DNA of 64,000 nt from Amnibacterium setariae (lineage in GTDB: Bacteria; Actinomycetota; Actinomycetes; Actinomycetales; Microbacteriaceae). Made by a program: the position numbers and the translations under genes. Position 1 is the first letter of the stretch. Every line of letters begins with the position of its first letter. The stretch lies in NCBI RefSeq assembly GCF_003581425.1, contig NZ_QXTG01000001.1, positions 186,001 to 250,000 of the forward strand, read 5' to 3'. A model generated the notes under the pieces. It did not search any database and was not told the origin of the DNA. It was given only the letters and a program-made list of their open reading frames with translations. This document shows positions 3,485 through 49,508 of the stretch, in pieces.

Positions 3485-3538
3485 GGGGGATCAGACCAGG
3501 GCGGGGGATCAGACCAGGGCGGGGGATCAGACCAGGGC
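3485..3538. repeat. Three perfect tandem copies of an 18-bp unit
   Basis: Units at 3485-3502, 3503-3520 and 3521-3538 are identical (GGGGGATCAGACCAGGGC). The third copy contains the last codons and stop of the minus-strand rhomboid gene; the other two lie just after it and repeat the same stop triplet. The unit length is a multiple of three. Confidence 0.95.
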
Positions 3539-4255
3539 GGCCGGTGCCAGGGCGAGCACGAGCAGCACCGCGGTGATGACGCCCGCGCCGGCCCACGCGC
3601 GGCGGTCGCGGCGCGGCCCGCGGTTCGAGACGAACAGCCAGCCGGTCACGGCGCCGACCACCAGCCCGCCGACGTGCGCCTGCCAGGCGATGCCCGGCAC
3701 CACGAAGCCCAGGGCGAGGTTGATGGCGATCAGCAGGAGCAGGGTGCGGACGTCGACGCCGAGCCGGCGCTGCACCGCGGCGACCGCGCCGAGCACCGCG
3801 AAGACCGCGCCCGACGCGCCGTAGACGAGCGTGTCGGGCCGCATGAGCCCGACGAGGGAGGCGGAGAGCACGCCGACCGAGCCGCCGAGCGCGCCGAGGA
3901 CGTAGATGGTGATCAGCCGTCGGGCGCCGATGACGCCCTCGAGCGGACGGCCGAACGACACCAGCGCGATCATGTTGAACGCGATGTGGGTGATGCCGAT
4001 CAGCGACCCGGGGATCGAGATCGGCTGGTGGATCAGCGCCGACGTCAGCATCCGCCACGGCTCGAACGCGATGCCGGTCGACGGCAGCGAGTAGGCCGGC
4101 GCGTAGGCGAGCAGCAGCTCGAGCACGCCGCCCGACAGCAGCTGCACGACGTACGCGGCGACCGTGACCGCCGCGATCCAGCCGGTGGCGGTGCGCGGGC
4201 GGTACCGCGCGGACCGCCGCCAGTACCGGCGGAGATCGGCGCGGACGTCGCTCAT
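3527..4255 (-). CDS. Rhomboid family intramembrane serine protease
   Basis: This 242-residue polytopic membrane protein should cleave substrates within the membrane. The rhomboid signatures are present in order: HIAFNM in the second core helix (H90, N94), GASG nucleophile motif (S148) and AHVGG with the catalytic histidine (H194). The soluble N-terminal 22 residues are Arg-rich and cytoplasmic. About seven hydrophobic helices can be drawn, consistent with a 6+1 topology, so the last helix (about 222-241) is the extra one. The start ATG at 4255 lies 4 bp after the cyclophilin stop, so the two are probably cotranscribed. The C-terminal codons lie in the last of three 18-bp tandem repeats. Substrates cannot be guessed. 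Confidence 0.9.
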   Translation of the reverse strand: MSDVRADLRRYWRRSARYRPRTATGWIAAVTVAAYVVQLLSGGVLELLLAYAPAYSLPSTGIAFEPWRMLTSALIHQPISIPGSLIGITHIAFNMIALVSFGRPLEGVIGARRLITIYVLGALGGSVGVLSASLVGLMRPDTLVYGASGAVFAVLGAVAAVQRRLGVDVRTLLLLIAINLALGFVVPGIAWQAHVGGLVVGAVTGWLFVSNRGPRRDRRAWAGAGVITAVLLVLALAPAALV

Positions 4256-47472: not shown

Positions 47473-47685
47473 GTGCTCCCCGCCGCCGCTCCCGCCCAGG
47501 ACCCCGCCGACGCCGCCGAGCTCGCGCGGCTCGAAGGGCTCGTCGCCGCCGTGCGCCTGCCGTCCCCGCTGCTGCCCGGATGGCAGTCGCTCACCGCGCT
47601 CGAGTACGCGGCGGCGGTCCACGAGCTGTCCGGGCTCCTCGGCACGGTCGCGACGGCGCTCGCCGCGGCCAGGGCCGCGGCATGA
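47473..47685 (+). CDS. Small helical protein, possible partner of the following hydrolase
   Basis: The 70-residue product is almost all alpha-helical (DAAELARLEGLVAAVRLPSPLLPGWQSLTALEYAAAVHELSGLLGTVATALAAARAAA), with a W in the centre. Size and helix-turn-helix shape recall WXG100-like small proteins or a helical bundle partner, but the WxG motif itself is not present. It starts at GTG 47473 and ends within the start of the next gene (ATGA overlap), so the two are coupled. No function is known. Confidence 0.55.
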   Translation: MLPAAAPAQDPADAAELARLEGLVAAVRLPSPLLPGWQSLTALEYAAAVHELSGLLGTVATALAAARAAA

Positions 47686-49013
47686 GCGGAGCCGTGGACG
47701 CGCCGGGGCCCTCCGTCGGCGGCGGCGGAGCGATCGCGATCGACACGGACGCGATGCTCCAGGCGGCGAGGGCGCTCGCCGTCGCGGTCGACGGCCTCCG
47801 ATCGGCGGCCGCGCAGGGCGCGGGCTGCGCGCCCGCGGCGCCCGCGGCCCGGTCGAGGGTCGAGGAGGCGGTCGGCCTCCTCCGCCGCGCCGTCGACCTC
47901 GCGGAACGGGCGGAGTCGGGGCTGCGCGTGGCCGCCGAGCGCTACGGAGCCGTCGAGCACCTCGTGCAGGACGGCCAGCGCGTCGTCGCGGCCGGCGCCG
48001 CCGCGGCCACGGGCGGGCTGCTGCGCACGCTGCTGCCGGTGCTCGGCCCGATCGGCACCGGCTTCGTCGCCGTCGGGCTGGTCGGGATCGCCGCGACCCT
48101 CGTCGTGCTCCGGACCGCGCAGCGCACGCTCGAGACCGGCCGGCTCGCGCCGCAGTCGGACCCGGTCCTGCGGCGCGCCGCCGCCCTCGTGATCGGCTCG
48201 CTCGACGACGGGATCCGGGGCGCCCTGGTGCTCGAGCGCCCCCAGGACCTGCTCGAGGACGACCCCGCCGCGCCGATCGGCAGCGAGCGCATCGCCGCGG
48301 TCCTCGCCGCGCTGGTGCTGCACCCCGCCGGAGCGGCCCTGACAATCACGTGCACGCGGCGGACCGCCGCCCGGCCGCCCGCGAGCGTCGCCGAGCTGGC
48401 CGACCGGCTGCCCGACGGCGGCGAGCCCGCGGGGCAGGTTCGCATCGAGCGGTACGACGGCCCGGACGGTGCGCGATGGATCGTCTACATCGCGGGCACC
48501 GTGACCTTCGCGCGGGACAGCGGCGACGAGCCCTTCGACCTCGCGTCCGACGTGCTCGGGGTCGCGCACCGCCCGAGCGACTCGGAGCGCGCGGTGCTGC
48601 AGGCGATGGCGGAGGCGGGGGTGGGGCCGGAGGACCCGGTGCTGCTGGTCGGGCACTCCCAGGGCGCGCTCGACGCCGTGCGCGTCGCGCAGGACGGCGG
48701 CTACCGGATCGGCGGCGTCGTCGGGTTCGGGGGCCCGACCGGGCAGATGGTGCTCCCGGACGACGTGCCCGTCCTCGCGGTCGAGCACGACGAGGACCTC
48801 GTGCCGGTGCTCGGCGGCGTCCCGGCCTCCGGCTCGGCCGGGCTGCGGCGGCTCGTGGTCCGCCGGTCGCTGCCGGACGGCGGCTTCGGCGTGCCGACCT
48901 CGCCGGCGACCGCCGCGTTCCCGGCGCACGACCTGGGCGCCTACCGGCGCACGACCTGGGCGCCTACCGGCGCACGACCGCCGCGGCCGAGGCGTCGGGC
49001 GATGCGCGCGTGA
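47682..49013 (+). CDS. Alpha/beta-hydrolase-like protein with N-terminal helical domain; C-terminus frameshifted
   Basis: The 443-residue protein has an Ala-rich helical N-terminal part (1-95), a hydrophobic pair near 100-150 (LLRTLLPVLGPIGTGFVAVGLVGIAATLVVL), and a hydrolase-like region with nucleophile elbow VGHSQG (S326), DHDEDLVPVLGG and HDLGAYRR with the presumed His. The last residues (WAPTGARPPRPRRRAMRA) follow a 23-bp tandem duplication at 48923-48968. Without one copy the frame would continue as HDLGAYRRTTAAAEASGDARVTAFRSR to a stop at 49147. So the C-terminus is probably altered in this strain. Type VII-like export of the N-terminal part is only a guess. Confidence 0.7.
   Translation: MSGAVDAPGPSVGGGGAIAIDTDAMLQAARALAVAVDGLRSAAAQGAGCAPAAPAARSRVEEAVGLLRRAVDLAERAESGLRVAAERYGAVEHLVQDGQRVVAAGAAAATGGLLRTLLPVLGPIGTGFVAVGLVGIAATLVVLRTAQRTLETGRLAPQSDPVLRRAAALVIGSLDDGIRGALVLERPQDLLEDDPAAPIGSERIAAVLAALVLHPAGAALTITCTRRTAARPPASVAELADRLPDGGEPAGQVRIERYDGPDGARWIVYIAGTVTFARDSGDEPFDLASDVLGVAHRPSDSERAVLQAMAEAGVGPEDPVLLVGHSQGALDAVRVAQDGGYRIGGVVGFGGPTGQMVLPDDVPVLAVEHDEDLVPVLGGVPASGSAGLRRLVVRRSLPDGGFGVPTSPATAAFPAHDLGAYRRTTWAPTGARPPRPRRRAMRA
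48923..48979 (+). repeat. 23-bp tandem duplication causing frameshift
   Basis: Units 48923-48945 and 48946-48968 are identical, and the first 11 bp of a third copy follow at 48969-48979. Because 23 is not divisible by three, the second copy shifts the frame of the hydrolase-like gene near its end. Confidence 0.9.
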
Positions 49014-49088
49014 CGGCCTTCCGCTCCCGCATCGAGCCGTTCCTCTCCGGAGCGCCCGGCGTCGCGACCCGGTGGCGGGCGCGGCGCG

Positions 49089-49508
49089 TCAGTCCGGGTC
49101 CCGGCCCGACAGCGGCCGCAGGATCAGCCCCACGACCCAGCCGATGATCCCGAGGACCAGGGCCCCGAGGACGCCCCACCAGAAGCCGTCGACGACGAGG
49201 CCGAACCCGATCGCCCCGCTGATCCAGGCGACCAGCAGGAACAGCAGGCCGTTCACGACCAGCGAGATCAGGCCGAGCGTGAGGAGGTAGAGCGGGAATG
49301 CGACGATGCGGATGGCGGTGCCCAGCACGCCGTTCACGAGCCCGAAGATGAGGCCGAGGAGCAGGTAGGTCAGCACGGACGCGACCGGGTCGTCGGCGCG
49401 GTAGGGCACCACGCGGACGCCGTCCCCCTGGCCCAGGGCCGAGAAGAGCAGCGTCGTGAGCCACAGGGCGATCGCGTTCACGATGGCCCGCACGACGAAC
49501 CGGCGCAT
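49089..49508 (-). CDS. Phage-holin-family / 4-TM membrane protein
   Basis: The 139-residue protein has four transmembrane helices with the pattern VLTYLLLGLIFGLVNGVLG, RIVAFPLYLLTLGLISLVVNGLLFLLVAWISGAIGFG and GFWWGVLGALVLGIIGWVVGLIL. It matches the actinobacterial phage-holin-4-like family, widespread on chromosomes and not evidence of phage by itself. ATG 49508 is the natural start (MRRFVVRAIVNAIALWLTT). The plus-strand hydrolase gene converges on it. Confidence 0.82.
   Translation of the reverse strand: MRRFVVRAIVNAIALWLTTLLFSALGQGDGVRVVPYRADDPVASVLTYLLLGLIFGLVNGVLGTAIRIVAFPLYLLTLGLISLVVNGLLFLLVAWISGAIGFGLVVDGFWWGVLGALVLGIIGWVVGLILRPLSGRDPD

What the first reader, a model, noticed from the sequence alone, without database searches (positions are those of the whole stretch)
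48923..48979. 23-bp tandem duplication shifts the hydrolase-like gene out of frame
Two identical 23-bp units plus 11 bp of a third lie in the coding sequence. Removing one unit restores a frame of HDLGAYRRTTAAAEASGDARVTAFRSR to a stop at 49147. With it, the C-terminus is a short Arg/Pro tail. This looks like a recent slip, possibly reversible (phase variation), or an assembly error.
Basis: seen in the sequence. Interest (0 to 1): 0.6.

Follow-up and report, generated by a model that had tools for sequence, protein, structure and literature searches.

The report
Recent duplication truncates a hydrolase gene
A 23-letter stretch of DNA has been copied twice in a row inside an ordinary bacterial enzyme gene, which garbles the end of the protein; the relatives examined carry one copy, so this looks like a recent copying slip and not a built-in switch.

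Summary
Window 48921-48979 holds two identical 23-bp units plus 13 bp of a third, giving a 36-nt exact match at lag 23; shuffled sequence reaches 12-18 nt. It lies in the 3' part of a predicted alpha/beta-hydrolase gene (47682-49013, +) in what appears to be an Amnibacterium genome (Microbacteriaceae). The closest relatives, L010 and L011, lack exactly these 23 nt, and all 6 genus relatives continue in one frame. All 32 relatives inspected keep 42-71 residues after the presumed catalytic His; the window's protein has 27. The downstream frame in the window is still open to 49147 and has not evolved faster than in relatives, so the event is recent. Nothing supports evolved phase variation: no scanned relative carries the array, and the 13-nt arms match at only 7-9 of 13 positions in the nearest relatives. 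Reads were not available, so assembly error and clonal reversibility remain open. Best reading: a slipped-strand tandem duplication that probably inactivates a conserved hydrolase, a well-known kind of mutation. Low interest.

The parts
48921..48943 (+). first 23-bp unit; holds the codon of the presumed catalytic His416 (48927-48929)
   Evidence: His invariant in the 5 of 5 proteins aligned
48944..48966 (+). second, identical 23-bp unit
   Evidence: L010 and L011 lack exactly 23 nt here in the DNA alignment
48967..48979 (+). 13 nt of a third unit: the short homology that probably mediated the slip
   Evidence: in L010 and L011 the corresponding arms match at 7 and 9 of 13 positions
47682..49013 (+). 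predicted alpha/beta-hydrolase gene as it now reads (443 aa)
   Evidence: GHSQG motif; homologs in 7 of 7 genus genomes and 159 of 199 family genomes
48957..49013 (+). shifted Arg/Pro-rich tail (18 residues) and early stop (TGA 49011-49013)
48977..49147 (+). abandoned but intact downstream frame that matches the C-terminus of relatives (56 codons plus stop)
47473..47685 (+). small ORF overlapping the hydrolase start by 4 nt, probably its operon partner
   Evidence: similar small ORF ending at the hydrolase start in L044

Best explanation
During replication the DNA probably slipped between two 13-nt direct repeats lying 23 nt apart in the 3' part of an alpha/beta-hydrolase gene, adding one 23-bp unit. 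Because 23 is not a multiple of three, translation leaves the old frame ten codons after that of the presumed catalytic His. About 55 residues are replaced by an 18-residue Arg/Pro tail. The Ser-Asp-His candidates are still encoded. The predicted C-terminal helices and last beta-strand of the hydrolase domain are lost, so the protein is probably misfolded or inactive. Shown: the duplication, its absence in relatives, the frame change and the intact abandoned frame. Inferred: the slippage mechanism, the loss of function, and that this is an ordinary recent mutation of this strain or species and not an evolved switch.
For: Exact 36-nt run at lag 23, against 12-18 nt in shuffles. Exactly 23 nt missing in the two nearest relatives L010 and L011. 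A tandem run of 14 nt or more (lags 6-79) in 0 of 30 relatives scanned. 32 of 32 relatives inspected continue 42-71 residues past the His, against 27 in the window. The downstream frame is open to 49147 and shows 4 lineage-specific amino-acid changes in 37 codons, against 4 in L010 and 2 in L011, so there is no sign of long relaxed selection. In the model of the A. kyonggiense protein the C-terminal helices 419-432 and 435-443 and strand 452-462 lie mostly in blocks of mean pLDDT about 80-90; in the window protein residues 369-443 are all below 50. Background: 464 kb of this genome (window plus a 400-kb sample) holds three perfect tandem runs of 36 nt or more with periods 18-23, so such slips are not unique to this gene.
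Against: No reads and no second genome of the same species were available, so the duplication could be an assembly artefact or could vary within a culture. The structure comparison rests on 5 sequences and low overall confidence (mean pLDDT 57.5 and 50.5), and part of the drop may come from a poorer alignment of the shifted tail. Loss of function is not shown. In the four more distant genus relatives (L012-L015) the gap opposite the insertion is 17 nt, because those proteins carry two extra codons just upstream.
Confidence: 0.8

Rival explanations
1. Phase-variable gene: the 23-bp unit is gained and lost at high rate, switching the full-length hydrolase on and off.
For: A 36-nt direct repeat with period not divisible by 3 is a mechanically plausible substrate. 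The same kind of event, reversible intragenic duplication, causes high-frequency phase variation in pneumococcal capsule genes (Waite et al. 2001 and 2003, seen only as reference-list titles and in two sentences of PMC4243769; 2003 title also in the reference lists of PMC11272040 and PMC13410964).
Against: 0 of 30 relatives scanned has a tandem run of 14 nt or more; arms match at 7 and 9 of 13 in the two nearest relatives. Similar perfect short tandem arrays occur at two other sites in the sampled sequence, outside coding sequence or at a gene's end. Whether the product is exposed to a selection that would favour switching is not known.
Confidence: 0.07
2. Assembly or sequencing artefact: the real chromosome has one copy.
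For: Only one assembly; reads not held; a conserved gene is broken by it.
Against: A 59-bp array is shorter than common reads; expansion is a rarer error than collapse (inference). Near-complete genome in 5 contigs (completeness 99.99, contamination 0.69).
Confidence: 0.08
3. The shortened protein is functional: the catalytic triad is kept and the new basic tail is tolerated or useful.
For: Presumed Ser326, Asp372 and His416 are upstream of the frame change.
Against: 32 of 32 relatives keep a longer C-terminus, most of them ending near a recurring (W/Y/F)-R-A-x-R-like strand; in A. kyonggiense that strand is predicted as part of the fold.
Confidence: 0.05

Closest known systems
Spontaneous intragenic tandem duplications as loss-of-function mutations (for example lrp in Xenorhabdus, PMC6786866; passages and section 8 read)
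   Same: Short tandem duplications (26-116 bp there) that disrupt a coding sequence among other random loss-of-function mutations
   Different: There they arose in culture and the lrp mutations were judged not to be phase variation because no genetic reversion was found in the isolates tested; here the selection and the rate are unknown
Reversible duplications in pneumococcal capsule genes (type 3 locus, cap8E and tts; Waite et al. 2001, 2003; known here from reference lists and two sentences in PMC4243769)
   Same: Intragenic direct duplication that abolishes the product
   Different: Reversibility and high frequency are reported there; nothing here shows reversion
Tandem-repeat copy number variation in Mycobacterium tuberculosis (PMC12817950; abstract and passages read)
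   Same: Tandem duplications of tens of bp in a high-GC actinobacterium
   Different: Those emphasised are promoter repeats that vary within populations; this one is in a coding sequence and no variation is known

Membership tests
Phase-variable locus by repeat copy number | Repeat in or near the gene whose copy number changes the reading frame or expression | tested here: met
   23-bp unit in the coding sequence, 23 mod 3 = 2; the two frames end at 49013 and 49147
Phase-variable locus by repeat copy number | Repeat retained at the locus in related strains or species | tested here: not met
   0 of 30 relatives scanned has a tandem run of 14 nt or more; no second genome of the same species was available
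Phase-variable locus by repeat copy number | High-frequency, spontaneous, reversible switching (criterion as stated in PMC11868660, passages) | not testable with these tools
   no reads, no clonal data
Pseudogene by frameshift | Frame disrupted relative to orthologs with loss of conserved sequence | tested here: met
Pseudogene by frameshift | Loss of function | not testable with these tools
   only a structural prediction
Alpha/beta hydrolase | Nucleophile elbow G-x-S-x-G and conserved acid and His in order | tested here: met
   GHSQG, Asp372 and His416 invariant in 5 of 5 aligned proteins; roles inferred
Alpha/beta hydrolase | Profile or fold match | tested here: inconclusive
   No Pfam family at E up to 1 for the window protein; Abhydrolase_1 matches 3 of the 5 proteins of alignment A1 at E up to 1, best E 0.00042; Foldseek best hits are alpha/beta hydrolases at E 0.015, none at 0.001 or below

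The most novel reading that the evidence does not exclude
The array switches the conserved hydrolase by copy number. In the two-copy state the shifted ORF ends in a GTGA overlap (49010-49013) that could let ribosomes restart in the abandoned frame, making the C-terminal part as a separate small protein: a reversible split of one enzyme into two chains.
Probability: 0.03. Interest if true: 0.5.

Novelty: new member of a known kind. Interest (0 to 1): 0.15.

Why it matters
Mainly an annotation matter: the predicted product of this gene in this genome is shortened by a recent duplication and should not be taken as a family variant with its own C-terminus. If copy number were shown to vary in culture, it would be an intragenic 23-bp switch in an environmental actinobacterium.

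Tried and rejected
Programmed or ancient variant: rejected, because no relative inspected has the array or the short tail. Long-standing pseudogene: rejected, because the copies are identical and the downstream frame has no stop and no excess of changes. Against this, the downstream piece has a higher nonsynonymous-to-synonymous ratio than the piece from GHSQG to the His region (0.49 against 0.24 versus L010; 0.47 against 0.24 versus L011). The L010-L011 pair differs about as much there (11 of 37 residues, against 13 and 11 for the window), so this is a property of the C-terminus and not of the window.

Domain assignment by Pfam and NCBIfam gave nothing firm for the window protein and NCBIfam nothing firm for three relatives. 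A profile search of solved structures gave only weak matches to hydrolases, best E 0.00014 over about 50 residues. Literature searches by terms found precedents for the mechanism; none of the titles and abstract starts listed concerned this gene. In the first C-terminus script minus-strand loci were read on the wrong strand, and that output was discarded. One search missed 2 of 33 loci (L019, L028), which were read. The lag-23 printout for L012 was anchored at a wrong His and was not used; the L012 row of the alignment starts further upstream for the same reason.

Full report
What is there. The window contains a perfect tandem array at 48921-48979: two identical 23-bp units plus 13 bp of a third. 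The exact self-match at lag 23 is 36 nt long; 20 order-3 Markov shuffles of the window gave maxima of 12-18 nt, so it is not chance.

Where it is. The window is G000:C1:186001-250000 of a 3.48-Mb genome in 5 contigs. The group searched as 'genus' contains a genome whose first contig has the same length (1,649,177) as the Amnibacterium kyonggiense record NZ_SOAM01000001.1, so the window is very probably Amnibacterium (Microbacteriaceae); this is inference. The array lies in an ORF that I start at the ATG at 47682 and that stops at 49013, giving 443 aa. It carries the motif GHSQG. A gene for an adenylosuccinate-lyase-like protein lies upstream on the other strand (name recalled from its sequence), here and in A. 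kyonggiense. A small membrane-protein gene converges on it from downstream, and similar DNA follows the gene in A. kyonggiense.

Relatives. The upstream part of the protein has a match in 7 of 7 genomes of the genus, own genome included, and in 159 of 199 genomes drawn from the family, own genome included. I inspected the 33 loci fetched for the best matches: the own genome, 6 genus relatives and 26 family relatives; matches without a fetched locus were not inspected. Of these, 31 were read and the remaining two. After the presumed catalytic His the 32 relatives continue for 42-71 residues (for 30 of them; the two others, read, have 48 and 60 by my count). The window's protein has 27 residues there. 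In the DNA alignment with the six genus relatives, L010 and L011, the closest, lack exactly 23 nt opposite the array. The four more distant ones show a 17-nt gap because they carry two extra codons just upstream; all six stay in one frame. A tandem run of 14 nt or more at lags 6-79 was found in 0 of 30 relatives scanned (L019 and L028 were not scanned).

How old. The two copies are identical over 36 of 36 positions compared at lag 23. The abandoned frame is open to 49147 and aligns with relatives along its length. In its first 37 codons the window has 4 lineage-specific amino-acid changes, L010 has 4 and L011 has 2. The C-terminus evolves fast in all three, so its higher ratio is not a sign of decay. 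The event is therefore recent relative to the divergence of these species; no finer date is possible.

Mechanism. The 13-nt overhang means that before the event the sequence probably had a 13-nt direct repeat spaced by 23 nt, a usual substrate of slipped-strand mispairing (established knowledge). The corresponding arms match at 9 of 13 positions in L011 and 7 of 13 in L010, so the perfect arms are particular to this lineage. A sample of this genome (464 kb, window included) has three perfect tandem runs of 36 nt or more, with periods 18, 19 and 23. The 18-bp one sits at the end of a gene and includes its stop codon by my reading; the 19-bp one lies between genes by my reading. Such slips therefore happen in this genome without any switch being implied.

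Consequence. The codons for the presumed Ser326, Asp372 and His416 precede the frame change. From residue 426 on there is an 18-residue Arg/Pro tail in place of about 55 residues. In the model of the A. kyonggiense ortholog the lost part forms most of a helix (419-432), a second helix (435-443) and a beta-strand (452-462), mostly in blocks of mean pLDDT about 80-90. In the model of the window protein residues 369-443 are all below 50. Both models are weak overall (mean pLDDT 57.5 and 50.5, 5 sequences), so inactivation is probable, not shown. Family assignment rests on the motif, on weak Pfam matches of relatives and on weak fold matches to alpha/beta hydrolases.

Known or new. Short intragenic tandem duplications that destroy a gene are a common mutation class. 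In Xenorhabdus lrp, tandem duplications of 26-116 bp arose among other mutations, and the authors judged that the lrp mutations were not phase variation (PMC6786866, passages and section 8). In pneumococcal capsule genes such duplications are reversible and called phase variation (titles of Waite et al. and sentences in PMC4243769). A recent review holds that high switching rates and spontaneous reversion have to be shown before a locus is called phase-variable (PMC11868660, passages); no such evidence exists here. I file this as a new instance of a known kind.

Noticed in passing
49010-49013: The stop of the shifted ORF (TGA) overlaps an in-frame GTG of the abandoned frame as GTGA, a layout that can allow translational restart; the GTG encodes a Val of the old frame, so this may be chance.
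   Followed up: partly
3485-3540: Perfect 18-bp repeat, 3.1 copies, at the end of a rhomboid-like gene on the minus strand (name recalled); each unit seems to include the stop codon.
   Followed up: partly
L051:13522-13581 (G000:C1, about 803522): Perfect 19-bp repeat, about 3.2 copies, apparently between genes; each unit holds the palindrome GCGGATCCGC, and another GCGGATCCGC stands about 60 bases upstream of the array.
   Followed up: partly
47473-47685: Small ORF overlapping the hydrolase start by 4 nt, with a G-W-x-S-x-x-x-L-E-Y pattern also seen in L044; no Pfam or NCBIfam match.
   Followed up: partly
49089-49147: The abandoned frame overlaps the 3' end of the convergent membrane-protein gene by 59 nt; the shifted ORF no longer does.
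   Followed up: no
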